DNA of 64,000 nt from positions 124,001-188,000 of the forward strand of contig NISF01000006.1 of the NCBI GenBank assembly GCA_002270295.1, written 5' to 3'. Shown here in pieces: positions 8,286-59,205 of this stretch (position 1 is the first letter of the stretch; each line of letters opens with the position of its first letter). This DNA comes from Enterobacter sp. 10-1 (GTDB lineage Bacteria > Pseudomonadota > Gammaproteobacteria > Enterobacterales > Enterobacteriaceae). Both the position numbers and the translations under genes were made by a program. Under the pieces are notes generated by a model. That model searched no databases, was not told the origin of the DNA, and saw nothing but the letters and a program-made list of their open reading frames with translations.

Positions 8286-9935
8286 TTACCGCTGGGCACA
8301 GCCGTTACACTGCTGGTTCTGGATCTGCTGGAAGAAGTCGTTGCCTTTATCATCCACCAGAATAAACGCCGGGAAGTCTTCCACCTCGATTTTCCAGATA
8401 GCCTCCATTCCCAGCTCCGGATAAGCCACGCACTCAAGGCTCTTAATACTCTGCTGCGCCAGCACCGCCGCCGGCCCGCCGATGCTGCCGAGATAGAAGC
8501 CGCCGTGCTTATGGCAGGCATCGGTCACCTGCTGGCTGCGGTTGCCTTTCGCCAGCATCACCATGCTCGCGCCGTGGGACTGCAGCAGATCGACGTAGGA
8601 GTCCATCCTTCCGGCGGTGGTCGGCCCCAGCGAACCTGACGCATAACCCTCCGGCGTTTTCGCCGGACCGGCGTAGTAGATCGGGTGATCTTTCACATAC
8701 TGCGGCAGCGCTTCACCGTTATCCAGCAGCTCCTTGAGCTTAGCGTGGGCGATATCGCGGGCGACGATAATCGTGCCGTTCAGCGTCAGGCGGGTTGAAA
8801 CCGGATGGGCCGAAAGCTGCTTGAGGATATCGTTCATCGGCTGATTGAGGTCAATGCTGACGACCTGGCCTTCACCCTGTCGGCGCAGCGCTTCCGGGAT
8901 GTACTGGCCGGGGTTGCTCTCCAGTTTCTCAATCCAGATCCCGTGACGGTTGATCTTCGCCTTGATGTTGCGGTCGGCGGAGCAGGAAACCCCCATCCCG
9001 ACCGGGCAGGAGGCGCCGTGGCGCGGCAGGCGAATCACGCGGATGTCGTGGGCAAAGTACTTGCCGCCAAACTGCGCACCGAAGCCGAGATCCTGCGCGG
9101 CCAGCAGCAGCTCCTGCTCCAGCTGCACGTCGCGGAACGCCTGGCCGTGCTCGTTGCCTTCGGTTGGCAGGTCGTCGTAATAGTGGGTGGAGGCCAGCTT
9201 AACGGTTTTCAGCGTCGATTCCGCAGAGGTCCCGCCGATAACAAAAGCAATGTGGTACGGCGGGCAGGCGGCGGTGCCGAGGGTACGCATCTTCTCGACG
9301 AGGTAGTTTTTCAGCTTCGCCGGGGTAATCAGCGCCTTGGTTTCCTGATAGAGATAGGTTTTGTTGGCCGAACCGCCGCCTTTTGCCATGCACAAGAATT
9401 TGTATTCGTCGCCGTCAACGCTGTACAGATCGATCTGCGCCGGCAGGTTGGTGCCGGTGTTGACCTCTTTATACATATCCAGCGCGGCGTTTTGCGAATA
9501 GCGCAGGTTATCTTCGGTATAGGTGTTGTAGACGCCGCGCGCCAGCGCCGCTTCGTCGCCGCCGCCGGTCCACACCCGCTGGCCTTTCTTGCCCATGATG
9601 ATGGCGGTGCCGGTGTCCTGACAGGTGGGCAGAATGCCCTTGGCGGCAATCTCTGAGTTACGCAGGAACTGCAGGGCGACGTACTTGTCGTTTTCGCTGG
9701 CCTCGGGATCGAGCAGAATGGCCGCTACCTGCTGCTGGTGGGAAACGCGCAGCATAAAGGCCGCGTCGTGAAATGCCTGCTGGGCCAGCAGGGTGAGCGC
9801 TTCAGGCGCAACCTTGAGAATTTCCTCGCCCTCGAACCCGGCGACGCTGACGTGCTCTTTGCTCAGCAGATAGTATTCAGTCTTATCTTTCGCCAGCGGA
9901 AAAGCTTCCTGATAAACAAACGGTTTAGTCGACAT
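8286..9935 (-). CDS. class I (iron-sulphur) fumarate hydratase
   Basis: Interconverts fumarate and malate. The 549-aa protein closely follows the FumA/FumB type over its whole length. The three cysteines expected to bind the [4Fe-4S] cluster are seen in PTCQDTGT (about residue 105), TAACPPYH (about 224) and SCPVGMGVS (about 318). The C-terminus has [16 protein letters not shown]. It sits 53 bp downstream of the antiporter gene on the same strand, so the two are probably cotranscribed. In E. coli fumB is next to dcuB and dcuSR, so by context this is the anaerobic, FumB-like role, but sequence alone does not separate A from B. Confidence 0.93.
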
Positions 9936-9988
9936 TGTTTAAGCTCCCTAAGAGTAAAACCGCCGGGAGTGACCCCGACGGTTGTGAA

Positions 9989-11500
9989 TCAGAACATCAT
10001 GGACATCCACGGATAACCAATCAGCAGCAGGGCGGCCAGGAAGATGGCGCCGAAGATGGTGCCGAGGCGCCAGTAGTCTTTGGTCGGCAGATAGCCGCTG
10101 CCGTAGTAGATCGGGCTGGGGCCGGTACCGTACGGGGTGATGATCCCCATAATGCCCAGCGAAGTGACCATCAGCAGTACGAATACCTGCATATTCATAC
10201 CCGGAATGGTGGAGGCGATGGTCAGCATGGCCGGCAGCAGCGCGGTGGTATGGGCGGTGGTGCTGGCAAACAGGTAGTGCAGCAGGTAGAACGCCAGCAG
10301 CAGCAAGATGGTGGCGACTCCCGGAGAGATACCGCTCATCAGCGCGCCGCCTTCTTTACCCAGCCAGGCGATAAAGCCGGTGGAGGAGAGGCCATCCGCC
10401 AGCGCCACCAGGGTGGCGAACCAGACGAAGGTATTCCACGCCGCTTTATTATTGGTGATATCGCTCCATGACAGAACGCCGGTCCACAGCATCAGGACGA
10501 TGACCAGCAGCGCCGCCAGCGCCGGTTCAATCCACTCGGCGGCGAAGATCCACATCGTCAGCGCGAAGCAGACGAACACCAGCAGCAGAATTTCATTACG
10601 CGACAGCCGACCCAGTTTTTCCAGCTCACGCGCGGCCCACAGCGGCACCTCATCATTCACCTTCACCTCCGGCGGATAGAACCAGTAGGCCAGCAGCGGC
10701 ATCACCAGAATCAGCAGCACGCCCACCGGCAGGAAGGCGATAAACCAGGTGCCCCAGGAGATATTGATACCGACAATACTTTTCACCAGCGCGAGGGCCA
10801 GCAGGTTAGGCGCCAGCGCCGAGAGGAACATCGAGCTGGTAATACAGGCGGCGGTAATAGCCACCCACATCAGATAGGAACCGATCCGCCGGGCGCTAGG
10901 GTCGTTAGGCTTAGAGCCATACAGCGGCGGCAGGTTGGCGATAATCGGGTAAATCGTCCCGCCGCTACGGGCGGTATTCGACGGAGTGAAGGGGGCCAGC
11001 AGCAGGTCGGCAAAGGTGATGGCGTAGCCCAACGTCAGGCTGCGGCGGCCGAGGTATTTTACCAGAATCAGCGCCAGACGGCGTCCAAACTGGGTTTTGT
11101 CGTAGCCAGCGGCAAACATAAAGGCGCCGAAAATCAGCCACACGGTAGAGTTACCAAAGCCGCTTACCGCCCACTTAAACGAGGCGCCGGCAAGCTTGAA
11201 TTTGGGGTCCGCCAGCTGCGCCGGATCGAATAGCAGCCACTGGCTGCACAGGGCGATAACCACCACCCCGGTGATCCCGATCACCGCCCCGGGAAGGGGT
11301 TCGAAAATCAGACCGACGATCACGCCGACGAAAATGGCAAAGTAGTGCCAGGCATATGGCGGCAGGCCATCAGGCACCGGGATGAAAAGTAGCAGTACGG
11401 CCACGATAATGGGCAGCGCCATCATCAGCAGACGACTTTTATCAACAGCCTTAGGACTGGCTGCACCGGCAGGCGGCGTGGTTGTCTTTTTCTCTTTCAT
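9989..11500 (-). CDS. DASS-family dicarboxylate/succinate antiporter (CitT/TtdT-like)
   Basis: Inner-membrane transporter of about 503 aa with 11-13 hydrophobic segments. It resembles the TtdT/CitT group of divalent anion:Na+ symporter family antiporters: APFTPSNTARSGGTIYPI near residue 160 and a C-terminal GTGPSPIYYGSGYLPTKDYWRLG block. These proteins swap a C4 or C6 acid for succinate. Beside fumarase and fumarate reductase it most likely imports malate or fumarate and exports succinate. The ATG at 11500 is chosen; an upstream TTG at 11515 is possible. A perfect FNR box lies about 190 bp upstream. Confidence 0.88.
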   Translation of the reverse strand: MKEKKTTTPPAGAASPKAVDKSRLLMMALPIIVAVLLLFIPVPDGLPPYAWHYFAIFVGVIVGLIFEPLPGAVIGITGVVVIALCSQWLLFDPAQLADPKFKLAGASFKWAVSGFGNSTVWLIFGAFMFAAGYDKTQFGRRLALILVKYLGRRSLTLGYAITFADLLLAPFTPSNTARSGGTIYPIIANLPPLYGSKPNDPSARRIGSYLMWVAITAACITSSMFLSALAPNLLALALVKSIVGINISWGTWFIAFLPVGVLLILVMPLLAYWFYPPEVKVNDEVPLWAARELEKLGRLSRNEILLLVFVCFALTMWIFAAEWIEPALAALLVIVLMLWTGVLSWSDITNNKAAWNTFVWFATLVALADGLSSTGFIAWLGKEGGALMSGISPGVATILLLLAFYLLHYLFASTTAHTTALLPAMLTIASTIPGMNMQVFVLLMVTSLGIMGIITPYGTGPSPIYYGSGYLPTKDYWRLGTIFGAIFLAALLLIGYPWMSMMF

Positions 11501-12134
11501 AATGAGTATCTGCAAGTAGTTAAAAATAAGGTTTAGTCATCGGTGACTTCTGATTTCTTTAATTTCAAAACTTTCTTTAGTTATTAATCATTGGCTTTTA
11601 TTATCACCGCGACGGTTATTTAACGCATTTTTTAGGGCGCTAAATTAAATCTGTTGGTTATTTATATATTGCTCTTTGATGTCGAATTGCAATTGATTGA
11701 GATCAATAAATCCAGGGGTGTGGCGTTTTTTTTACTTCGCGCAATAACCCTGCGGGAGAGGGTGGTTATTTGTGCGAAATATCGCTAAATGTTAAAAATA
11801 AGTCGGTTTTTAGAGTCTTGATGAAACGGGATTATCTTTTAACGTGTTGATTTTTATTGGTTGAAATATTTACGATCATTTTATTGCTTATTAACAAAAG
11901 TATCTTATTTGTTATCGATATTATGCTTTGTGTAAACGTTGTATTTTAAAAAAATAATACGATGGAGGTAGTGATGTTATTGTTGGTATTAAATAGTTTT
12001 TTAACTAACGTAAGTGATTTGGTAACTAAAAAATTCGCTATATTATTAGCATGACAACAGGAATTAAAAGCACAACTAAAAATAAATTCCTTACCGAATT
12101 CTGAATTTCAATATTTAAAATCTGGAGTATTACT
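11501..12134. promoter_or_regulatory. divergent control region of the fumarate module
   Basis: This 634-bp AT-rich gap separates the antiporter (minus) from the fumarate reductase (plus). Beyond the FNR box it has an inverted repeat AATAACC/GGTTATT at 11743-11770. A possible promoter for the reductase is TTGGTA at 12019-12024 with TATTAT at 12041-12046 (16-bp gap). No open frame of note is present. DcuR targets are expected here, but I cannot point to a defensible DcuR site. Confidence 0.55.
11693..11706. promoter_or_regulatory. FNR box (perfect match) upstream of the antiporter-fumarase genes
   Basis: TTGAT-TGAG-ATCAA matches the FNR consensus TTGAT-N4-ATCAA at every fixed position. On the minus strand TATATA/TATAAA (11661-11668) lies where a -10 should be if the site is centred near -41.5, the class II activator position. 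This predicts anaerobic activation of the antiporter and fumarase. It is about 430 bp from the reductase start, so its effect there is less certain. Confidence 0.75.
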
Positions 12135-14912
12135 ATGACCAGTAATCAACGTATTTTTCAGCCCTTTACCTTACCAAACGGAACTGAGCTAAAAAACCGC
12201 CTGTTTATGGCACCGATGACCACCTGCACCGGCTATTTTGACGGCTCCGTCACCAGCGAGCTGGTGGAGTACTACCGCGCCCGAGCGGGCAGCATCGGTA
12301 CCATTATCGTCGAGTGCTGCTTTATCGATGACTATGGCCTGGCTTTCCCTGGCGCCATAGGCATCGACAATGATGACAAAATTGCCGGCCTGGCCAAAAT
12401 TGCCGAAGCCATCCAGGCGGAAGGGTCGAAAGCCGTTTTGCAGATCTATCACGGCGGCCGCATGGTCGACCCGCAGCTTATCGGCGGCCGACAGCCGGTA
12501 GCGCCGAGCGCGCTGGCCGCTCCGCGCGACGGCGCCGCGATGCCGCGCGCGCTAAGCGCTGAGGAAGTAGAGGAGACGATCGCGAAATTTGGTGACGGCG
12601 TCCGCCGCGCGATTCAGGCCGGTTTTGACGGGGTCGAAATTCACGGCGCCAATACCTATCTTATCCAGCAGTTCTATTCCCCGAACTCTAACCAGCGTGA
12701 CGACTGCTGGGGCGGCAGCCGCGATAATCGCGCCAGATTCCCGCTGGCGGTGCTGGATATCACCCATAAAATGGTCAGCCAGTACGCGGACGACGCTTTT
12801 ATTATCGGCTACCGTTTCTCGCCGGAAGAGCTGGAAGAGCCGGGCATCCGCTTTGACGACACCCTCTACCTGCTGGAAAAACTGGCGGCGCGGGGCCTCG
12901 ACTATCTGCACTTCTCGGTAGGCGCCTCGCTGCGCCCCTCCATCGTCGATACCTGCGATCCGACGCCGCTGATTGAAAAATACTGCGCGCTGCGCTCCGC
13001 TAACCTCGCGCAGGTTCCGGTGATGGGCGTTGGCGGGATCGTTAACGCCGCAGATGCCGAGCAGGGGCTGGATCGCGGCTACGATCTGATCGCCGTTGGG
13101 CGGGCCTGCATTGCCTATCCTGACTGGACCGACCGCGTTGCCGATGGCGAAAATCTGGAGCTGTTTATCGACAGCACCCGGCGTGAAGCCCTGCATATTC
13201 CGGAGCCGCTGTGGCGCTTCTCGCTGGTGGAAGCGATGATCCGCGATATGAGCATGGGCGATGCGAAGTTTAAGCCCGGCGTCTTTGTTGAAACCGTACA
13301 GGACGAGGCCAGCGAGCTGGTTATCCACGTCAGCCTTGAGAGCGATCGCATTGCCGACGTGGAGCTGGCCTCCAGCGCGGTACAGACCGTGGAGTTCACC
13401 ACCAGCTTTGAAGAGATCCGCGAGCGCATTTTGACCGCCAATACTCCGCACGTTGACGCCATATCCGGCGCCACCAGCCAAAGCGAGGCGGTGAAAAAAG
13501 CGGTATCCAAAGCGATGCTGAAATCCAGCAAAGCGCTGGCGATTGAAGAGGGCGGCGACGATCGCGCGGTGAAAAGCTACGACGTGGTGGTGGTGGGCAG
13601 CGGCGGTGCGGGTCTGGCGGCGGCGATTCAGGCCCATGATGAAGGCGCCAGCGTGCTGCTCGTTGAAAAAATGCCGACTATCGGCGGCAATACCATTAAA
13701 GCCTCCGCCGGGATGAACGCCGCGGAAACGCGCTTCCAGCGGGTAAAAGGGATCGTGGACAGCAAAGAACTGTTCTATCAGGAAAGCCTGAAGGGTGGGC
13801 ATAACAAAAACAACCCTGAGCTGCTGCGCCGCTTTGTCGAAAACGCCCCGGAGGCGATTGAGTGGCTGGCCCGCCGCGGGATCATGCTTAACGATATCAC
13901 CACCACCGGCGGGATGAGCATTGATCGTACCCACCGTCCGCGCGACGGGTCGGCGGTCGGCGGCTATCTGATTAGCGGCCTGGTGCGCAATATCAGCAAA
14001 CGCGGGATTGACGTGATGCTGGACACCTCGGTCAAAGAGATCCTGATGGCAAACGACGAAGTGAGCGGCGTACGTCTGCTCAACGATGAGCAGGAGCGCT
14101 TCGACGTGCAGACGAAGAGCATCGTGGTCGCCACCGGCGGCTTCAGCGCCAACAGCGCGATGGTGGTGAAGTACCGTCCGGATCTCGCCGGTTTTGTCAC
14201 CACCAACCATAAAGGGGCGACCGGCGGCGGCATCGCGCTGCTGGAACGCATCGGCGCCGGCACCGTGGATATGGGCGAAATCCAGATCCACCCGACCGTT
14301 GAACAGAAGACTTCATACCTGATTTCGGAGTCGATTCGCGGCGGCGGAGCCATTCTGGTGAGCCAGCAGGGGCGGCGCTTCTTTAACGAAATGGCGACCC
14401 GCGATAAAGTATCGGCGGCGATTATCGCGCTGCCGGAGCAGTACGCCTGGATCGTCTTTGACGAGCATGTGCGGGCAAAAAACAAAGCGGCAGATGAATA
14501 TATCGCCAAAGGCCTGGCCACCAGCGCCAGCTCCCCGCGCGAACTGGCGGAGACGCTGGGGATGGATTACCATGCCTTCCTTGCCACCCTCGAACGCTAC
14601 AACGGCTTTGTTGAAAACCAGCGTGACGATGATTTTGGCCGGACCACCGCGCTGCGGGCGCCGATTAACGAAGGGCCGTTCCATGCGATCCGCATCGCCC
14701 CGGGCGTTCACCACACTATGGGCGGGGTGACGATTAATACCGCGACCGCAGTGTTAAATACCGCTCAGCAGCCGATTCCCGGCGCCTATGCCGCCGGGGA
14801 AGTGGTCGGCGGCATCCACGGCGGCAACCGTATCGGCGGCAATGCGGTGGCGGATATCATTATCTTTGGCACCCTGGCGGGCCATGAGGCGGCAAAACGC
14901 GCCAGAGGATAA
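12135..14912 (+). CDS. soluble NADH-dependent fumarate reductase (OYE + FMN-bind + FAD domains)
   Basis: A 925-aa single-chain enzyme with three flavin domains. Residues 1-360 are an old-yellow-enzyme NADH:FMN oxidoreductase. Residues about 375-465 are an FMN-binding domain with the flavinylation motif D-A-I-S-G-A-T; Thr447 is the expected FMN ester site. Residues about 480-925 are a flavocytochrome-c-type fumarate reductase with an FAD motif (GSGGAG, 488-493). Its active-site residues match H719, R756, H859/H860 and R899. There is no signal peptide or haem motif, so it is cytoplasmic. A homologous enzyme is characterised in Klebsiella pneumoniae as NADH:fumarate oxidoreductase. The start follows TGGAG. 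ApbE is encoded 54 bp downstream. Confidence 0.93.
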   Translation: MTSNQRIFQPFTLPNGTELKNRLFMAPMTTCTGYFDGSVTSELVEYYRARAGSIGTIIVECCFIDDYGLAFPGAIGIDNDDKIAGLAKIAEAIQAEGSKAVLQIYHGGRMVDPQLIGGRQPVAPSALAAPRDGAAMPRALSAEEVEETIAKFGDGVRRAIQAGFDGVEIHGANTYLIQQFYSPNSNQRDDCWGGSRDNRARFPLAVLDITHKMVSQYADDAFIIGYRFSPEELEEPGIRFDDTLYLLEKLAARGLDYLHFSVGASLRPSIVDTCDPTPLIEKYCALRSANLAQVPVMGVGGIVNAADAEQGLDRGYDLIAVGRACIAYPDWTDRVADGENLELFIDSTRREALHIPEPLWRFSLVEAMIRDMSMGDAKFKPGVFVETVQDEASELVIHVSLESDRIADVELASSAVQTVEFTTSFEEIRERILTANTPHVDAISGATSQSEAVKKAVSKAMLKSSKALAIEEGGDDRAVKSYDVVVVGSGGAGLAAAIQAHDEGASVLLVEKMPTIGGNTIKASAGMNAAETRFQRVKGIVDSKELFYQESLKGGHNKNNPELLRRFVENAPEAIEWLARRGIMLNDITTTGGMSIDRTHRPRDGSAVGGYLISGLVRNISKRGIDVMLDTSVKEILMANDEVSGVRLLNDEQERFDVQTKSIVVATGGFSANSAMVVKYRPDLAGFVTTNHKGATGGGIALLERIGAGTVDMGEIQIHPTVEQKTSYLISESIRGGGAILVSQQGRRFFNEMATRDKVSAAIIALPEQYAWIVFDEHVRAKNKAADEYIAKGLATSASSPRELAETLGMDYHAFLATLERYNGFVENQRDDDFGRTTALRAPINEGPFHAIRIAPGVHHTMGGVTINTATAVLNTAQQPIPGAYAAGEVVGGIHGGNRIGGNAVADIIIFGTLAGHEAAKRARG

Positions 14913-14966
14913 CCCTTCGCGATATACCCCGGCCGCAAGCCGGGGTCATCCACAGGAGCTGCAACC

Positions 14967-15920
14967 ATGTCTGACGATAGTCGCGTTTATAGCTACTCCG
15001 CCGTTTTAATGGGTTCGCCCATTTTGCTTAAACTGTTCCGTCACGATGACGCGCTCGCCTCCCGCACCTTCCAGCTGATTAAACGCTACGAAGATCTGCT
15101 TACCGTAAACCGCGCGCGCTCGCAGGTGATGGATATTAACCATGCCGCCGGTCGCCATGCGGTGGCCGTCAGCCGTCCGGTGTATCAGCTGATCAAATGC
15201 GCAAAAGCCGCCAGCATGGTGCGGGATAGCGCGTTCAACCTGGCGATTGGCCCGCTGGTAAAGCTCTGGCGCATCGGCTTTCAGGGGCGCAGCGTTCCGG
15301 CGGCGGCAGAGATTGCCGCCCGCCTGCCGCTGATCCGGCCGCAGGATGTGATCCTTGATGAGGCGGCGGGCAGCGTGTTTCTTGCTCAGCCGGGTATGGA
15401 GATCGACCTTGGCGCCATTGCCAAAGGCTACATTGCCGATCGGGTGCGCGATGACCTGCGGCGGCAGGGCGTCGACGCGGCGCTGATTAATCTCGGGGGA
15501 AACGTGCATACCCTCGGGGAGTGGTCCATTGGTCTGAAAAAACCGTTTGCCGCCGCCGACGAGCTGGTCGGCACGATTGCGGTTACCGGCCAGTCGGTGG
15601 TGACCTCCGGCGTCTATGAGCGCTATTTTGAGCAGGACGGCAGGCGCTGGCACCATATTCTCGACCCGCGCAGCGGCTATCCGTTGGATAACGAGCTGGA
15701 GAGCGTGACCATCATTTCTGATGACTCTCTCGACGGTGATATCTGGACCACCCTGATCTACGGCCTGGGCGTTGAGAAAGGGCGCGCAGCGCTGCGTCAA
15801 CGTGAGGATATTGAAGCGATTTTTGTGACTAAAAATCGCGAAGTGATCCTCTCATCGCAGCGCCGCTTTCGTTTTCAGCTGCTGGATAGCGGCTATCGGC
15901 TTACTGACTGTACTGCTTGA
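14967..15920 (+). CDS. apbE: ApbE-type FAD:protein FMN transferase, cytoplasmic
   Basis: Attaches FMN through a phosphoester bond to Ser/Thr of DxxSGAT motifs. The 317-aa protein has family features: EIDLGAIAKGYIAD (about residues 145-158), NLGGNVHTLGEW (about 175-186), and the HHILDPRSGYPLDN block (about 229-242). It has no lipoprotein signal or leader, unlike periplasmic ApbE, which fits a cytoplasmic target. The target is almost certainly the fumarate reductase 54 bp upstream. The start is set by AGGAG 8 bp before the ATG. Its 3' end overlaps the convergent dcuR by 20 bp. Confidence 0.93.
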   Translation: MSDDSRVYSYSAVLMGSPILLKLFRHDDALASRTFQLIKRYEDLLTVNRARSQVMDINHAAGRHAVAVSRPVYQLIKCAKAASMVRDSAFNLAIGPLVKLWRIGFQGRSVPAAAEIAARLPLIRPQDVILDEAAGSVFLAQPGMEIDLGAIAKGYIADRVRDDLRRQGVDAALINLGGNVHTLGEWSIGLKKPFAAADELVGTIAVTGQSVVTSGVYERYFEQDGRRWHHILDPRSGYPLDNELESVTIISDDSLDGDIWTTLIYGLGVEKGRAALRQREDIEAIFVTKNREVILSSQRRFRFQLLDSGYRLTDCTA

Positions 15921-16620
15921 GCAGGCTGTACTGCTCCGCCACCAGCCGATAGCGATAGACCGGCCGGCCGGTGGCGCCGTAGTGAATGCTGGTGTAGAGG
16001 ATATTAATCTGCGCCAGCCAAATCAGATATTTGCGGCAGGAGACGCGGGAAATGTTCACCGCGACCGCCAGCTCGTCGGTGGAGAACTCGGTCGCCGGGT
16101 GCGCATCGATCCACTGGCAGAGCGTGCGCAGCGTTTGCGAGGTGAGCCCCTTCGGCAGCTTACGCGCGTCGGTTGCTTCCGGCGCGTCGCCGTGCAGCAG
16201 GCGGTCAACGTCCGCCTGCTCATAATAAGTCTGTCCGGTCATCAGCTTTCTTTTCTCGCGCCAGGCGGTTAACGCCTCCTCAAAACGCGGGAACTGGAAG
16301 GGCTTAATCAGATAATCGACAACGCCGTAGTGCATCGACGTTTGTACGGTGGCGGCATCGGCGGCGGAGGTGATCATAATCACGTCGATGGCGCGGCCGG
16401 AGGCGCGGATGGTCGGCAGCAGATCCAGCCCGCTATCGTGCTGCATATAGACGTCGAGCAGTACCAGATCGATCTCCAGCTCGTCGTCGTTAATCATCTC
16501 CCGGGCCTTATTCAGCGTAGATGCGGTGCCGCAGCAGCTGAAGCCGGAAATCCGCGCCACGTACAGGCGGTTCAGTTCGGCTACCATGGCATCGTCATCA
16601 ACAATTAATACATTTATCAC
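15901..16620 (-). CDS. dcuR: response regulator DcuR of the C4-dicarboxylate two-component system
   Basis: A 239-aa CitB/DcuR-family regulator. The receiver domain (1-120) begins INVLIVDDDAMVAELN and has the phospho-acceptor aspartate in LVLLDVYMQ near residue 57 and Lys in LIKPFQ. The C-terminal part has a helix-turn-helix (FSTDELAVAVNISRVSCRKYL). It follows E. coli DcuR along its length. The gene overlaps dcuS by 4 bp (ATGA), so the pair is translationally coupled. It converges on apbE, and its likely targets are the fumarate genes next door. Confidence 0.92.
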   Translation of the reverse strand: MINVLIVDDDAMVAELNRLYVARISGFSCCGTASTLNKAREMINDDELEIDLVLLDVYMQHDSGLDLLPTIRASGRAIDVIMITSAADAATVQTSMHYGVVDYLIKPFQFPRFEEALTAWREKRKLMTGQTYYEQADVDRLLHGDAPEATDARKLPKGLTSQTLRTLCQWIDAHPATEFSTDELAVAVNISRVSCRKYLIWLAQINILYTSIHYGATGRPVYRYRLVAEQYSLLKQYSQ

Positions 16621-18236
16621 GCACTGTTCCTTTTACTATCCCAGGGTAGGTGGACAAAAAATTGGGTAAATACGCCGGGTTCGGACTCGACGGCAAGCGT
16701 CCCGCCCAGTTCGCGCAGCTGCTGGCTGGCAAGAAACAGGCCAACGCCGCGATTCTCGCCTTTGGTGGAGAAGCCTTTATTAAAGATCGCATCGATATTC
16801 GCCTCCGGGATCCCCGGGCCGTCGTCGCTCACTTCGCCGCTTAGCCAGCCATTTTGATAGTGTAACAGCAGGCTGACTTCACCCTCGTGCTGCTCGTGCA
16901 TGGCGTCGAGCGCATTCTCAATCAAATTGCCCAGTACGGTGACCAGGACGGTAATCTGCTTTTCGTTGGGGCAGTCGGGGACGAGGCTCTCCTCCGCGAG
17001 GTTAAGGCTAAACCCACGCTCTTTCGCACGCTGGATTTTACCAATCAAAAAGCCGGCTACCACCGGCGATTTTATGCGGTGCTGGATTTCGCCGATGTCG
17101 GCCTGATAGGTATGGGCGGTTTGTAGCACGTACTCCTCAAGCTTGTCATAGCTTTTCATATTCAGCAGGCCGAGGATGACGTGCAGCTTATTCATAAACT
17201 CGTGGGAAGTGGTACGCAGCGCATCCACATAGTTGACCATGCCGTCGAGTCGCTGCAGCAGCTGGCTGACCTCGGTCTTGTCGCGGAAGGTGCTGATGGC
17301 GCCGACGGTGGCGTTCTGGCTGCGCACCGGTACGGTATTGCTGATAAGCAGCAGACCGTTGCAGCCGAGCTCGCGGTCGTAAATTGGCGTCCCGGTGCGC
17401 AGGACCTCCTGTAAATCGGCGAGCAGCGGCGTATGGCCGAGGGTTTTATCGGGGCCGCTGAACAAAATTTCGCGCGCGGCCGGATTGATAAGGGTCACTT
17501 GCCCTTCGGTATCGACCGCCACCACGCCCTCTTTTAACGAGTGCAGCATCGCCTGGCGCTGCTGGTACTGGGTGGAGATCTCCTGCGGCTCCAGGCCGAG
17601 CAGCACGCGCTTGAGGCCGCGAACCAGGCTCCAGGTTCCGAGACCGCAGACCAGGGCGCTGAATAGCACGGTAAAGAGGACGTCCCAGCGGCTGTTGGCG
17701 ATCTGGGTATCCACCTTGCTAAGCGAAATACCGATTGCCACGACGCCAATTTGCCGGTGGTTAGCGTCAAAGACCGGCGTAAAGGCGCGCAGGGCCGGGG
17801 CCAGCACGCCGTGGTTGACGGCAACGTTCTCCTTTCCCTGCAGCGTGGGGTTAATGTCATCGCCAATAAACCGCTTGCCGATAATCTGGCTGTTGGGGTG
17901 CGAGTAGCGAATACCCTGCATATCGGTGACCACCGCAAACAGCAGATCGTTGCGCCGGACGATCGCCTGCGCCAGCGGCTGAATAATATCGCTGTCCGCC
18001 GGCTGGGTCAGGCCGCGCTTCATTTCCGGCATATCGGCAAGCGTCCGCGCCACCGCCAGGGCGGTGTCTTTCAGCCCGTCGCGGGTGGTATCACTGATTT
18101 GGATAAACCACAGCGCGTAGACAAGCAGCAGTACCGAACCCAGCACGCTGCCAATCATCAGCGTCACGGCGGTACTCAGCTTCATGCTCTTACGGCGTTT
18201 GCGCGCGGGCGGTTCCTGCTCCGCTAACTCATTCAT
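16617..18236 (-). CDS. dcuS: sensor histidine kinase DcuS for C4-dicarboxylates
   Basis: Membrane kinase of 539 aa. One membrane segment (about 20-42) is followed by a periplasmic PAS domain with the IRYSHPN and LRAFTPVFD segments that correspond to the fumarate-binding pocket of DcuS. A second membrane segment lies near 185-205, then a cytoplasmic PAS domain, a dimerisation helix with the phospho-acceptor histidine in the SHEFMNKLHV motif, and an ATPase with N-box NLIENALDAM and DDGPGI. It resembles E. coli DcuS throughout. Transport partners such as DcuB normally modulate DcuS; here the nearby DASS antiporter might do so, which is inference. Confidence 0.92.
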   Translation of the reverse strand: MNELAEQEPPARKRRKSMKLSTAVTLMIGSVLGSVLLLVYALWFIQISDTTRDGLKDTALAVARTLADMPEMKRGLTQPADSDIIQPLAQAIVRRNDLLFAVVTDMQGIRYSHPNSQIIGKRFIGDDINPTLQGKENVAVNHGVLAPALRAFTPVFDANHRQIGVVAIGISLSKVDTQIANSRWDVLFTVLFSALVCGLGTWSLVRGLKRVLLGLEPQEISTQYQQRQAMLHSLKEGVVAVDTEGQVTLINPAAREILFSGPDKTLGHTPLLADLQEVLRTGTPIYDRELGCNGLLLISNTVPVRSQNATVGAISTFRDKTEVSQLLQRLDGMVNYVDALRTTSHEFMNKLHVILGLLNMKSYDKLEEYVLQTAHTYQADIGEIQHRIKSPVVAGFLIGKIQRAKERGFSLNLAEESLVPDCPNEKQITVLVTVLGNLIENALDAMHEQHEGEVSLLLHYQNGWLSGEVSDDGPGIPEANIDAIFNKGFSTKGENRGVGLFLASQQLRELGGTLAVESEPGVFTQFFVHLPWDSKRNSA

Positions 18237-18410
18237 AACAACCCCAGGGTAAACAGCGAAGGCCTATTATCGCTGATGGTGTGAATTTCTTAAAGGCATG
18301 TAAAAAAGCAATAAACGATTCGCCGGGAACCGGGAAGCGTGACCCCACTCGCAGGAGACGGCGGTAAATATCCCTATAGTGAATGCGGAGTTATTTAAAT
18401 GGAGGTTTTT

Positions 18411-19331
18411 ATGAGCAGTAAGCCAACCGCTTCAATGACGGAACGACGCCACCCTGATACCCGCCGCATCGATAGTCTCACCACCTACGACATGCTGACG
18501 ATGCTGCACGCAGACGGTCGGCAGATTGCCAACGCCATCGACGCCTGCCTGCCGGAAATGACCCGCCTGGTCGATAACGCCGCGGCGACCCTTAGCCGAG
18601 GAGGGCGGCTGGTGATTGTCGGCGCCGGCGCATCCGGACGCGCGGCCCTGCAGGCCGTCAACGAGTTTGCGCCTGAGGAGAAACATTCGCTGGTGGGGCT
18701 CATCGCCGGTGGGCCAGCGGCGGCGCTGCAGGAGATGGAAACGGCCGCCAACGACTACGATCTTGGCGCTTGCGAGCTGCAGGCGCTGCGCTTTAGCAAT
18801 AACGATATGCTGCTGGCGCTGACGGTCAGCGGCAAAACGCCGTGGGTATGGGGAGCGATGCGCCACGCCTGGTCGCTCGGCGCGCCGGTCGCGGTGCTGA
18901 CCCAGCAGGCGGATAGCGAAGCGGCGCAGCTGGCGGACATTATCGTTGCGCCGCAAACCGGTCCGGAAGCGGTCGCGGGGTTTGGTAACCCGAAAGCCCA
19001 GCTGGCGCAGCGGCAGCTCCTCAGCATGCTGACCACCGGGCTGGCCATTCGCGGCGGCAGGGTCTTCAGCAACCTGCGCGTCGATCTGCAGGCCACCAGC
19101 CCGCGCTGGGCTGAACGCCAAATCGCCATCGTAATGGAGGCCGCCGGCTGTTCGCGCAGTGAGGCGAAAGCCGCGCTTGCCGGCTGCAATCAGCACTGCC
19201 GGACGGCGATTTTGATGCTGCTTAGCGGGCTTGACGCATGGCGGGCGCGCGAGCTGCTGATGGAAAATAACGATCATCTGCGCATTGCGTTACAGGATAA
19301 AACGCATCAGCTGGCAGGGTCGCAGAGTTAA
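18411..19331 (+). CDS. MurQ-like SIS-domain protein (putative sugar-phosphate etherase)
   Basis: A 306-aa protein of the MurQ/glucokinase-regulator SIS family. It has the phosphosugar-binding GAGASGR at 71-77 and SGKTPW near 143. The C-terminal helix region resembles MurQ. The residue corresponding to MurQ Glu83 is kept (E85 in VNEFAPEE). The second catalytic glutamate (Glu114 in E. coli MurQ) seems replaced by Ala or Asn in ETAAND. It may therefore act on another substrate or be regulatory. GGAGG sits 5 bp before the ATG at 18411, which decides the start over 18399. No sugar PTS or kinase gene is adjacent. Confidence 0.75.
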   Translation: MSSKPTASMTERRHPDTRRIDSLTTYDMLTMLHADGRQIANAIDACLPEMTRLVDNAAATLSRGGRLVIVGAGASGRAALQAVNEFAPEEKHSLVGLIAGGPAAALQEMETAANDYDLGACELQALRFSNNDMLLALTVSGKTPWVWGAMRHAWSLGAPVAVLTQQADSEAAQLADIIVAPQTGPEAVAGFGNPKAQLAQRQLLSMLTTGLAIRGGRVFSNLRVDLQATSPRWAERQIAIVMEAAGCSRSEAKAALAGCNQHCRTAILMLLSGLDAWRARELLMENNDHLRIALQDKTHQLAGSQS

Positions 19332-55957: not shown

Positions 55958-56182
55958 TTGACCTGTGGGTACCGAACTTTGGCTTCCGGGAGTACAAGCG
56001 CTATTCCGAACAGATGCTCGACGTTTTTCCCCGTAGTTAAACCTTAGATAATGGCTGTACGCACCTTAGTGACATCCGGGCTGAGTAATAAGTTTGACGA
56101 GTGCTGAGGGAAAAATACCCGCCCGACCCGGACTGTCTACCGATTACCCGGATAGGAGACGGCACCTTGGGAAACGGGTAAG
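55958..56182 (+). pseudogene. decayed duplicate of the rspA 3' end
   Basis: This region aligns with rspA 53189-53405: GACCTGTGGGTACCGAACTT and CAGATGCTCGACGTTTT recur, and GAGACGGCACCTTG...TAA matches the rspA stop region. Stop codons (GTAGTTAA, GAGTAATAAG, GAGTGCTGAG) break the frame. The intact gene is 2.8 kb upstream. It is a remnant of a tandem rspA or of an ancestral second rsp cluster. The rest of the 55848-56245 gap is AT-rich and shows nothing else. Confidence 0.88.
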
Positions 56183-56245
56183 CATAATGTGTACGCACGA
56201 AAGATGTTGATTAACCCAATACCCTATAAAAGGTAAAAAAAACCT

Positions 56246-57580
56246 ATGGTTAGTTCAGTCGAAGTTAAAAGTGGTGCAGGTAATAAAACTATTATTCGCC
56301 GAGTAGCCAGTGCATCTGCAATTGGGACCGCTGCAGAATATTATGACTTTTTTGCATACGGAACGGCAGCGGTACTCTTTTTTGGACATCTATTTTTCCC
56401 AAGTGACGATCCTTTAATTAGTACTCTTGCAGCTTTTGCAACATATGCAGTTGGTTTCTTAGCGCGGCCATTAGGTGGAATTGTTTTTGGTCATATCGGC
56501 GATAAGGTTGGCCGTAAAAAAGCGCTGGTGATTACAATATTAATTGTAGGGTTAGGTACGTTTTGTATTGGGCTGTTACCGACGTATGAAAAAATTGGTA
56601 TTTGGGCTCCAGCATTGCTTATCTTTATTCGTGTGTTACAAGGCTTTGGTGTTGGCGGTGAGCAGGCCGGTGCGGTATTGATGACAGCTGAATATTCTGA
56701 ACCAAAGCATCGTGGATTCTTCTCCAGTTGGGTTCAAATCGGTGCACCAGTTGGTTTTCTGCTTCCATTAGCTCTGTTTGCTTTATTGAATGCCACGCTC
56801 TCTCCAGAGGCGATGATGGACTACGGGTGGCGTATACCGTTCCTGTTAAGTCTGCTACTGGTTATTGTAGGGTTGTTTATTCGTTTAAAAATTGATGAAT
56901 CGCCAGTGTTCGCTCAAATTCGTGAGACCAAGGCTGAAGAATCTCGCCCATTGGTTGAAGTTATTCGTGATTTCCCCGGAATTGTTGTAAAGGGAGTGTG
57001 CGCAAAATTGATCGAAGCGTGTACATTTGCGATGTTTACAGTCATTGTTTTGGCCTATGGTAAGGCAAATAATCTCGATGCTAATATTTTGATGGAAGCA
57101 ATGATTGTTGCTGTAATAATAGAAATTATTGCAATACCGCTGATGGGATCGCTATGTGATAAAATCGGGCGCAAACCAGTTTATATTATTGGGGCGTTGA
57201 TTCAAGTTATTATGATTGTTCCATTCTTCCTTGCTATTAATCAGGATAGTTTCTGGCTTACTCAGTTAGTGATGATTTTGGTTCTGAGCGTAGGGCACAG
57301 TATGTGTTATGCCCCACAGGCATCATATTTCCCTGAACTGTTCCCGACCCATATTCGTTGTAGCGGTATTGCATTGATTTGGCAGATGGGATCTCTTATT
57401 GGTAGCGGGATCCTTGGCCTGGTGGCGGTGAAGATTCTGCAAGTTACAGGTGGCCATTATTACGGACTTGCAACCTACGTCATTGTTTTGGGTGTTATCT
57501 CAATAATTGGCTTGCTGATGATGCCAGAAACTGCACCACAGCGGCTCAAGCGTGAATACCAGCAGTGGCAAAAACACTAA
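56246..57580 (+). CDS. second MHS-family MFS transporter, AT-rich
   Basis: A 444-aa metabolite:H+ symporter with 12 hydrophobic segments. It has ASAIGTAAEYYDFFAYGTAA at about 23-42 and the loop GHIGDKVGRKKAL. It is not close to the adjacent YdfJ. The base composition is clearly more AT-rich than neighbouring genes, and codons such as ATT, TTA and GGT are common, which suggests acquisition from elsewhere. It lies between the decayed rspA copy and ydfI, so it may serve the same pathway. The substrate is unknown. Confidence 0.88.
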   Translation: MVSSVEVKSGAGNKTIIRRVASASAIGTAAEYYDFFAYGTAAVLFFGHLFFPSDDPLISTLAAFATYAVGFLARPLGGIVFGHIGDKVGRKKALVITILIVGLGTFCIGLLPTYEKIGIWAPALLIFIRVLQGFGVGGEQAGAVLMTAEYSEPKHRGFFSSWVQIGAPVGFLLPLALFALLNATLSPEAMMDYGWRIPFLLSLLLVIVGLFIRLKIDESPVFAQIRETKAEESRPLVEVIRDFPGIVVKGVCAKLIEACTFAMFTVIVLAYGKANNLDANILMEAMIVAVIIEIIAIPLMGSLCDKIGRKPVYIIGALIQVIMIVPFFLAINQDSFWLTQLVMILVLSVGHSMCYAPQASYFPELFPTHIRCSGIALIWQMGSLIGSGILGLVAVKILQVTGGHYYGLATYVIVLGVISIIGLLMMPETAPQRLKREYQQWQKH

Positions 57581-57587
57581 CAATCCC

Positions 57588-57607
57588 TGGCGGCTTCAAT
57601 GCCGCCA
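57588..57607. terminator. small hairpin after the AT-rich transporter
   Basis: TGGCGGC and GCCGCCA form a 7-bp stem with loop TTCAAT, 8 bp past the stop. On the plus strand A residues follow, so it is a weak terminator candidate. Confidence 0.35.
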
Positions 57608-57741
57608 AAACCTCTCCGTGTGGTACATAACTTCAAAATGATGTCATACCAATACTGCAAAACTTAATTCAAATCAAAACATACAACCATACAGGCGTTA
57701 CTCTGAGACAGTCCTGATTTCATTTATAAGTAGGTTATATA

Positions 57742-59205
57742 ATGCAAAACAAGCTATTGGCGGCAAAGGCTGCACTTCCTGACTACGATCGTACAAAACT
57801 GATTTCCCGTATTGTGCACCTCGGTTTCGGCGCCTTTCACCGCGCGCACCAGGCGGTTTATGCCGATATTCTGGCCGCGGAACATGGCAGCGACTGGGGA
57901 TATACCGAAGTAAACCTGATTGGCGGCGAGCAGCAAATTGCCGATTTGCAACAGCAGGACCTGCTGTATACCGTCGCCGAAATGTCGGCGGATGCCTGGA
58001 CGGCGCGGGTGGTTGGCGTCGTTAAGCAGGCGATGCACGCCCAGGTCGAGGGGCTGGAAAGCGTGCTGGCAAAAATGTGTGAGCCGCAGGTGGCGATTGT
58101 TTCGCTGACCATCACGGAAAAGGGCTACTGTCATTCGCCGGCCACCGGTGAGCTGCAGCTGGATCATCCGCTGATTGTCGCCGATGTCCAAAACCCGCAT
58201 CAGCCGAAGTCTGCGCCCGGCGTTATTGTTGAAGCGCTGGCGCGGCGTAAAGCCGCCGGTTTACCGGCATTCAGCGTGATGTCCTGTGACAATATGCCGG
58301 AAAACGGCCACGTATTGCGCAACGTCGTCTGCGCCCTGGCGCGGGCGATTGATGGCGAGCTTGCCGACTGGATCGCCGCTAACGTGACCTTCCCGTCAAC
58401 GATGGTCGATCGTATTGTTCCTGCGGTGACCCCCGCGACCCTGGATAAAATCGAACAGCTGACCGGCGTGCGCGATCCGGCCGGCGTCGCCTGCGAACCG
58501 TTCCGCCAGTGGGTGATTGAAGATAATTTCGTCGCCGGTCGCCCGGAATGGGAAAAGGCCGGCGCGGAGCTGGTGGCGGACGTTGTGCCGTTTGAAGAGA
58601 TGAAGCTGCGCATGCTCAACGGCAGCCACTCTTTCCTTGCCTACCTCGGCTACCTGGCCGGATATCAGCACATTAACGACTGTATGCAGGACCAAAACTA
58701 TCGTCGCGCCGCCCGCAGCCTGATGCTGGATGAACAGGCGCCGACGCTGAAAGTGCAGGGCGTTGACCTGGCTCGCTACGCCGGGCTGCTGATCGATCGT
58801 TATAGCAATCCGGCGCTTCAGCACCGGACGTGGCAGATTGCGATGGACGGTAGCCAGAAGCTGCCGCAGAGGATGCTGGATTCGGTACGCTGGCATCTGG
58901 CGCAGCAGAGCGACTTTAGCCTGCTGGCGCTGGGCGTGGCCGGCTGGATGCGCTACGTCAGCGGCGTCGACGACCGGGGAGAGGCGATTGAGATTTGCGA
59001 CCCGCTGCTGCCGGTGATCCAGCAGGCAGTGCGCGAGAGCGCCGATGGCGAAGCGCGGGTGAACGCGCTGCTCGGCATCGAGGCGATTTTCGGCGCCAGC
59101 CTGGCGCTGGATGCGCGCTTTGTCGACGCGGTGACTCAGGCCTATCTTTCGCTGCAGCGTCAGGGAGCTAAAGCGACCGTTGCGGCCTGGGCGCTGGCGC
59201 AGTAA
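57742..59205 (+). CDS. ydfI: YdfI, mannitol dehydrogenase/fructuronate reductase family
   Basis: A 487-aa polyol dehydrogenase of the UxuB/MtlD long-chain family. The nucleotide-binding N-terminus is [20 protein letters not shown]; the catalytic lysine region is [17 protein letters not shown] near residue 288. E. coli ydfI is near rspAB and is thought to oxidise a sugar acid such as D-mannonate. A role next to RspA is consistent with mannonate use. A hairpin follows. Confidence 0.9.

What the first reader, a model, noticed from the sequence alone, without database searches (positions are those of the whole stretch)
8286..18236. Self-contained soluble fumarate-reduction module with its own cofactor enzyme, transporter and two-component sensor
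Seen: class I fumarase, DASS antiporter, a 925-aa reductase with OYE, FMN-bind and FAD/fumarate-reductase domains, an ApbE without leader, and dcuSR, all contiguous. Known: homologous Klebsiella NADH:fumarate reductase carries covalent FMN added by ApbE, and DcuSR senses C4-dicarboxylates. Inference: the unit recycles NADH by turning imported malate or fumarate into succinate without the membrane FrdABCD enzyme, independently of quinones. Having the sensor next to the reductase, not next to dcuB, suggests DcuSR was recruited to control it.
Basis: partly seen in the sequence, partly recalled or inferred. Interest (0 to 1): 0.8.

Follow-up and report, generated by a model that had tools for sequence, protein, structure and literature searches.

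The report
Soluble fumarate reductase locus with DcuSR
A block of genes shared by many gut and plant bacteria lets cells dump spare electrons onto fumarate without oxygen, and its control DNA carries a conserved oxygen switch plus a repeat that tends to go with the neighbouring fumarate sensor.

Summary
The six genes are as described (one start codon shifts). The enzyme is an orthologue (90% identical in a K. pneumoniae genome) of the soluble Klebsiella fumarate reductase already in print, so this is not a new system. The order fum–DASS–FRD–apbE–dcuR–dcuS is complete in 64 of 68 testable loci from several Enterobacterales families. The genome also has the membrane fumarate reductase, dcuB, dctA and fumAC, so the unit adds to the membrane route; this is the only DcuS found in the genome. 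New is the 634-bp DASS–FRD intergenic region: a perfect FNR box in 71 of 76, and an AT-rich tandem repeat (TAACTAA, 21 bp apart) ending 9 nt before a TATATT. A profile trained on close relatives found the repeat in 19 of 19 held-out loci with adjacent dcuSR and in 0 of 5 from genomes without DcuS, all five keeping a perfect FNR box. A weaker relative lies after dcuR in 7 of 7 E. coli-type loci, in the same orientation. I read it as the DcuR operator; binding is unproven. Late 'recruitment' of DcuSR is doubtful: FRD-linked DcuS is widespread, E. coli-type DcuS is one clade, though the root is unresolved.

The parts
8286..9935 (-). class I [4Fe-4S] fumarase (FumA/FumB type): malate <-> fumarate
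   Evidence: NCBIfam NF011920/NF011919 above cut-off; a second class I fumarase beside fumC is 89% identical
9989..11500 (-). DASS-family transporter, probably a fumarate or malate/succinate exchanger; ATG start at 11500
   Evidence: TIGR00785; best annotated E. coli DNA matches among the 4 rows shown are ttdT, L-tartrate/succinate antiporter; closest solved sequence 6wu1. Substrate not tested
11559..11583 (-). tandem TAACTAA-type repeat reading toward DASS (18-bp step), second copy of the putative DcuR operator
   Evidence: 61 of 76 reach the score used
11664..11669 (-). conserved TATATA, putative -10 of a leftward DASS-fum promoter, at +31 to +36 from the FNR-box centre
   Evidence: logo over the 71 intergenic regions with a perfect box
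11693..11706 (.). perfect FNR box TTGAT-N4-ATCAA
   Evidence: perfect in 71 of 76 intergenic regions (75 relatives and the window), one mismatch in 3; the 4-bp spacer has 15 different sequences; 3 of 1520 Markov sequences have one
11988..12032 (+). 45-bp putative DcuR operator of the FRD promoter (TAACTAA at 12002 and 12023)
12039..12044 (+). putative -10 TATATT of the FRD-apbE promoter, 9 nt after the second repeat
   Evidence: same distance in 67 of 76
12135..14912 (+). soluble NADH:fumarate reductase (OYE + covalent-FMN + FAD/fumarate reductase domains)
   Evidence: 90% identical to the K. pneumoniae ATCC 13883 protein
14967..15920 (+). cytoplasmic ApbE, FAD:protein FMN transferase
   Evidence: PF02424, 2.2e-78; below the cut-off of the one NCBIfam ApbE equivalog hit (121 of 498 bits)
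15901..16620 (-). DcuR response regulator
   Evidence: NF007750 equivalog, 440 bits (cut-off 262)
16617..18236 (-). DcuS C4-dicarboxylate sensor kinase; the only DcuS found in the genome
   Evidence: NF008298 above cut-off; next best genome matches 29-30% identical; 60% identical to E. coli DcuS

Best explanation
An anaerobic, C4-dicarboxylate-induced unit for disposing of NADH. The DASS carrier brings in fumarate or malate, probably against succinate; the class I fumarase turns malate into fumarate; the soluble FRD, matured by its own cytoplasmic ApbE (FMN on Thr447), passes electrons from NADH to fumarate without quinone; succinate leaves. Transcription is set by two signals: FNR (no oxygen) at the box in the DASS-FRD intergenic region, placed like a class II site for a leftward DASS-fum promoter, and phosphorylated DcuR (C4-dicarboxylate outside, sensed by the adjacent DcuS) at tandem repeats on both sides. 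Shown here: genes, conserved residues, conserved order, conserved FNR box and repeat, co-occurrence of the FRD-side repeat with dcuSR. Taken from literature: a soluble fumarate reductase and its ApbE dependence in K. pneumoniae (passages); NADH as donor is recalled. Inferred: DASS substrate and direction, FNR and DcuR binding, direction of flux.
For: Complete order in 64 of 68 testable loci. Seven Fcc3 active-site positions and the FMN threonine kept in 90 of 90. FNR box perfect in 71 of 76 with a freely varying spacer and a conserved TATATA at about class II distance on the DASS side only. Repeat with TATATT at a fixed distance in 67 of 76; a 45-bp profile trained on 53 loci scored above the 95% level of shuffles in 19 of 19 held-out dcuSR-adjacent loci (17 above every one of 100 shuffles) and in 0 of 5 loci from genomes without DcuS, all five with a perfect FNR box. 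Two of the only 3 places of the strict tandem pattern in the 6.1-Mb genome are here. A weaker match lies at the same relative place and orientation after dcuR in 7 of 7 distinct E. coli-type loci (p 0.002 to 0.03). The DcuS ligand residues of E. coli (recalled: R107, H110, F120, R147, F149) fall on columns identical here.
Against: No binding or expression data. The one DcuR footprint I could read (EHEC LEE1 promoter; PMC10636207, passages) is AT-rich but not clearly the TAACTAA repeat. The 45-bp profile finds nothing above the 95% level of shuffles upstream of dctA, frdA or dcuB in this genome, though E. coli dctA, dcuB and frdA are DcuR targets (recalled); a half-site profile gave p about 0.025 at this dcuB but at an unlike place, and p about 0.19 at E. 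coli dcuB. On the DASS side the repeat lies downstream of the start inferred from the FNR box (about +74 to +98), so that promoter map needs a second start or is wrong. The FNR box lies about 350 bp upstream of the inferred FRD start, too far for simple class II activation. Relatedness was not corrected for: the DcuS-less loci are among the more divergent (FRD 64-73% identical), though dcuSR-adjacent loci at 72-73% (L090, L092, L094, L150, L151) still score. The seven E. coli-type loci were grouped after I had seen the block in an alignment. The reversed control pattern occurs 4 times in the genome against 3 for the real one.
Confidence: 0.7

Rival explanations
1. The repeat is bound by another regulator, for instance ArcA (AT-rich direct repeats, recalled), and DcuSR only lies beside the unit.
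For: GTTAGTTAA on one strand of the FRD repeat and GTTAATTAA in the E. coli dcuB block resemble the recalled ArcA box; the single readable DcuR footprint is not clearly the same motif; no match at dctA, frdA or dcuB of this genome.
Against: ArcA is expected throughout the order (recalled, not searched), yet the repeat is absent in 5 of 5 DcuS-less loci that keep the FNR box and present in 19 of 19 held-out dcuSR-adjacent loci; it recurs after dcuR in E. coli-type loci.
Confidence: 0.18
2. The real physiological substrate is another enoate taken up by the DASS carrier; fumarate reduction is secondary.
For: The carrier's best annotated E. coli relative is TtdT, a tartrate/succinate antiporter; reductases of related architecture act on other substrates (recalled).
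Against: Seven Fcc3 fumarate-site positions kept in 90 of 90; a fumarase is next door in 66 of 68 testable loci; the K. pneumoniae enzyme is described as a soluble fumarate reductase.
Confidence: 0.08
3. DcuSR was recruited late to the FRD unit.
For: The core fum-DASS-FRD-apbE exists without dcuSR (L190-L192), and 18 of 38 DcuS-bearing genomes in the family sample have no FRD at the limit used.
Against: Linkage spans four families, and E. coli-type DcuS forms a single clade (100/100) among FRD-linked lineages; one genome of the window's genus has dcuSR beside what reads as a 3' remnant of apbE, so the unit was lost there.
Confidence: 0.25

Closest known systems
Cytoplasmic fumarate reductase of Klebsiella pneumoniae (KPK_2907) with its cytoplasmic ApbE
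   Same: Same domains, covalent FMN motif, adjacent apbE; 90% identity to the K. pneumoniae ATCC 13883 protein, whose locus has the same six-gene order (L020).
   Different: No difference in the enzyme found. Added here: the neighbourhood as a conserved unit and its shared control region.
E. coli fumB-dcuB-dcuR-dcuS locus
   Same: Class I fumarase, C4-dicarboxylate carrier, dcuR, dcuS in the same order and strand; a related 45-bp block between dcuR and the carrier.
   Different: DcuB in place of the DASS carrier, and no FRD-apbE between carrier and dcuR; by DNA search 0 of 5426 complete E. coli genomes hold 80% of the FRD gene.
Shewanella flavocytochrome c3 fumarate reductase
   Same: FAD/fumarate reductase domain and active-site residues
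   Different: Periplasmic, haem-fed (recalled); here an OYE domain and covalent FMN precede the FAD domain

Membership tests
Klebsiella-type soluble NADH:fumarate reductase (FRD) | OYE + FMN_bind + FAD_binding_2 in one chain | tested here: met
Klebsiella-type soluble NADH:fumarate reductase (FRD) | flavinylation motif D-x-x-[ST]-G-A-[ST] | tested here: met
   DAISGAT 441-447; threonine kept in 90 of 90; motif as given in PMC12052999
Klebsiella-type soluble NADH:fumarate reductase (FRD) | fumarate active-site residues | tested here: met
   Q363 H365 E378 R381 R402 H504 R544 of Fcc3 (roles recalled) aligned and kept in 90 of 90
Klebsiella-type soluble NADH:fumarate reductase (FRD) | NADH:fumarate activity, covalent FMN | not testable with these tools
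   needs protein
DcuSR two-component system | DcuS/DcuR curated models above cut-off | tested here: met
   NF007750, NF008298
DcuSR two-component system | C4-dicarboxylate ligand residues in the periplasmic domain | tested here: met
   RYSH, F and RxF columns identical to E. coli DcuS; residue roles recalled
DASS exchangers | DASS model above cut-off | tested here: met
   TIGR00785, 500 bits
DASS exchangers | exchange of C4-dicarboxylates | not testable with these tools
   needs transport assay
FNR-activated promoter | TTGAT-N4-ATCAA at about class II distance from a -10 | tested here: met
   DASS side only; class II distance recalled; binding not tested
DcuR operator | sequence match to a proven DcuR site | tested here: inconclusive
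   readable LEE1 footprint not clearly alike; own dctA, frdA and dcuB upstream regions no match; E. coli-type loci match

The most novel reading that the evidence does not exclude
The textbook E. coli fumB-dcuB-dcuR-dcuS locus is a reduced descendant of this unit: FRD-apbE was lost and DASS replaced by DcuB, and the conserved block between dcuR and dcuB, which points away from dcuB toward dcuR, is the relic of the FRD operator now acting on dcuB from a distance.
Probability: 0.35. Interest if true: 0.6.

Novelty: new member of a known kind. Interest (0 to 1): 0.42.

Why it matters
It gives concrete, testable DNA sites for how a soluble fumarate reductase would be switched on by two signals, no oxygen and external C4-dicarboxylate, in many Enterobacterales where fumarate reduction is usually discussed through FrdABCD alone. 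One example: an Enterobacter succinate-producer paper lists only a four-gene fumarate reductase, and separately a fumarase and dcuRS whose locus numbers (18775, 18795, 18800) leave room for the three genes of this unit between them (PMC7402333, passages; the fit is my inference). It also offers a comparative handle on the DcuR binding sequence and on the origin of the E. coli dcuB-dcuSR arrangement.

Tried and rejected
Half-site profile with variable spacing: in E. coli, L172, L173 and L174 the best hit falls in the conserved block but is not significant (p about 0.12-0.19); in L176, L177 and L178 it falls elsewhere (p about 0.13, 0.02, 0.07); at this genome's dcuB p about 0.025 at a place unlike the block. 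The 45-bp profile was used instead; both are reported. dctA, frdA and dcuB of this genome lack the operator by that profile; kept as evidence against.

Rows dropped: first grouped 12 loci as 'no DcuSR', of which 6 had a perfect FNR box. Of these 12, L152, L154, L155 and L157 (none with the DASS gene divergent upstream of FRD; two mismatches to the FNR box; 9-10 of 14 to the repeat consensus) were left out, and L155's genome does have a more distant DcuS elsewhere. L153 and L156 were not scored. L075 and L078 are shown apart as of unknown status; L093 and L096 apart as second copies. Five of the 80 loci (L042, L064, L065, L081, L084) have no DASS on the contig and so are not among the 76 intergenic regions.

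E. coli-type group: dcuB itself was seen in 3 of the 7 (L126, L172, and L194, which is the genome of L174); in L173, L176, L177 and L178 the fetched stretch ends too soon. L194 and L174 are one genome, so the count is 7, not 8. Mislabelled rows in the DcuS tree: L195-L198 were labelled 'other' but are refetches of FRD-linked L056, L090, L089 and L094, which inflates the change counts of the FRD and other groups, not of the E. coli-type group.

'Replaces FrdABCD' and 'self-contained' rejected. Fumarase phylogeny considered and not run. Structure prediction not run: homology was decisive. Papers on the K. pneumoniae enzyme (10.1093/femsle/fnaa175), on E. coli DcuR footprinting (PMC355966) and on dctA (PMC94081) are not held. 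None of the listings or passages I saw (passages) describes control of the soluble reductase by DcuSR or FNR; this covers only the held open-access library.
Full report
Observation. The six genes are present, contiguous and of the named families. Corrections: the DASS gene most likely starts at the ATG at 11500; apbE and dcuR overlap by 20 bp at their 3' ends. The window lies in a 6.1-Mb genome whose closest named FRD matches are from Raoultella and Klebsiella, with one Enterobacter-titled record among them.

What else the genome has. frdA, frdB and frdC score above equivalog cut-offs; the 119-aa ORF after frdC sits where frdD should be but had no hit at the 1e-60 limit I used. Another DcuA/DcuB-family carrier lies about 10 kb from frd, and a carrier 95% identical to E. 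coli DcuB lies alone near thiC and thiH. A second class I fumarase lies beside fumC, and dctA is present. DcuS is single: the next best matches are 29-30% identical; DcuR was not searched for separately. So the unit adds a soluble route to an organism that also has the membrane one, and its DcuS is unlikely to serve it alone.

Enzyme. The FAD domain aligns to Shewanella Fcc3; seven active-site positions (roles recalled) are identical, and these plus the FMN-bearing threonine are identical in 90 of 90 relatives examined. The soluble Klebsiella enzyme KPK_2907 and the need for the signal-less ApbE are in print (PMC4348036 passages; PMC12052999 passages). From memory, a 2020 paper reports NADH as donor and induction only without oxygen and with fumarate or malate; that paper is not held, so this is a lead only, but it is what the control region predicts.

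How common. Of 80 loci kept (of 194 relatives found), 70 have the whole order, 64 of the 68 with at least 5 kb on both sides. The four exceptions with room: L078 and L095 lack dcuSR; L093 and L096, second FRD copies in Pantoea sp. BAV 3049 and Winslowiella arboricola, lack fum, apbE and dcuSR. In E. coli, dcuSR-like DNA is in 5365 of 5426 genomes and 80% of the FRD gene in none (DNA search). In a family-wide sample of 119 genomes (118 genera; the window's own included), 38 have DcuS, 25 have FRD and 20 have both; in 16 of these 20 the two are adjacent (my reading of the coordinates). Not adjacent: G032, G247, G263 and G266, the last with FRD at a contig end. Five have FRD without DcuS at the limit used (G177, G219, G236, G248, G268); in the three I looked at, fum-DASS-FRD-apbE is intact (L190-L192). 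In the wider order sample FRD was in 10 of 140 and DcuS in 5 of 140 at strict limits, so the unit is common only in part of the order. Among 19 relatives of the window's genus, 17 have a full-length FRD. One of the other two, G005, keeps dcuSR (DcuS 84% identical) and genes further out on both sides, but shows no match to the genes between about 4.5 and 15.9 kb of the window, an emrB-type gene included, nor to the MurQ-like gene; just beside dcuR its DNA still encodes what I read by eye as the last residues of ApbE. The unit was lost there.

Control region. The 634 bp between DASS and FRD are 30% GC. The FNR box at 11693-11706 is perfect in 71 of 76 intergenic regions (75 relatives and the window) and has one mismatch in 3; the two without are L093 and L096. 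The 4-bp spacer takes 15 forms, so the conservation is not mere relatedness. The other window matches have a mismatch. Anchored on the box, a TATATA at +31 to +36 toward DASS is nearly invariant, close to class II geometry (about 32 expected, recalled); nothing like it lies on the FRD side. Before FRD there is a second conserved block, TTAAATAGTTTTTTAACTAACGTAA...GTAACTAAAAA, with TAACTAA copies 21 bp apart and TATATT after 9 further bases in 67 of 76. A related repeat with an 18-bp step reads toward DASS (61 of 76 reach the score used); it lies downstream of the start that the FNR box implies, which I cannot explain without a second start. In the whole genome the strict tandem pattern occurs three times, two being these; the reversed control pattern occurs four times.

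Is it DcuR's? A 45-bp profile from 53 close relatives was run on loci left out of training. All 19 with dcuSR adjacent score above the 95% level of shuffled sequence, 17 above all 100 shuffles (L089 and L094 not); several of the 19 are near copies (Rahnella, Mangrovibacter). All 5 from genomes without DcuS (L095, L158, L190, L191, L192) score below that level, though each keeps a perfect FNR box; both second copies score below it; L078 and L075, of unknown status, lie above it. In 7 of 7 distinct E. coli-type loci the best hit is the same block, 150-265 bases after dcuR, on the strand pointing to dcuR, p from 0.002 to 0.03 (L173 weakest). The seven were grouped after I saw the block in an alignment, and dcuB itself was seen in three; they are also one DcuS clade. 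Five other loci with dcuSR (L175, L179, L181, L182, L184) show nothing in the 570 bases after dcuR. Those five count against a simple rule that dcuSR always has the operator beside it, as do the missing matches at dctA, frdA and dcuB of this genome.

Evolution. In a tree of 65 DcuS rows (57 different) E. coli-type DcuS is one clade (100/100) while FRD-linked DcuS is spread over several lineages and four families. The root, set by two distant CitA-like rows, is not resolved. This argues against late recruitment to FRD and for a derived E. coli arrangement, without proving it. Erwinia mallotivora, E. psidii and Pantoea BAV 3049 DcuS fall with Cedecea (100/97), which suggests that the locus also moves between families.

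Verdict. A known enzyme in a common, well-kept locus. The new part is a conserved two-signal control region with a candidate DcuR operator.

Noticed in passing
L093, L096: Second DASS-FRD copies in Pantoea sp. BAV 3049 and Winslowiella arboricola lack apbE, fum, dcuSR, the FNR box and the repeat nearby, yet keep the FMN threonine.
   Followed up: partly
   Followed up: no
window 18399-19331: MurQ-like SIS-domain protein divergent from dcuS: above a MurQ subfamily cut-off, below the etherase equivalog (217 of 302 bits), and beside dcuS in many of the loci.
   Followed up: no
window 56001-58000: GC drops to 0.447 against 0.52-0.66 in the other 2-kb steps; ORFs there read by eye as an MFS transporter and a mannitol/fructuronate-type dehydrogenase.
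   Followed up: no
L078 (Brenneria sp. 4F2): Keeps a perfect FNR box and a weaker TAACTAA tandem repeat with no dcuSR within 9 kb; its genome could not be searched.
   Followed up: partly
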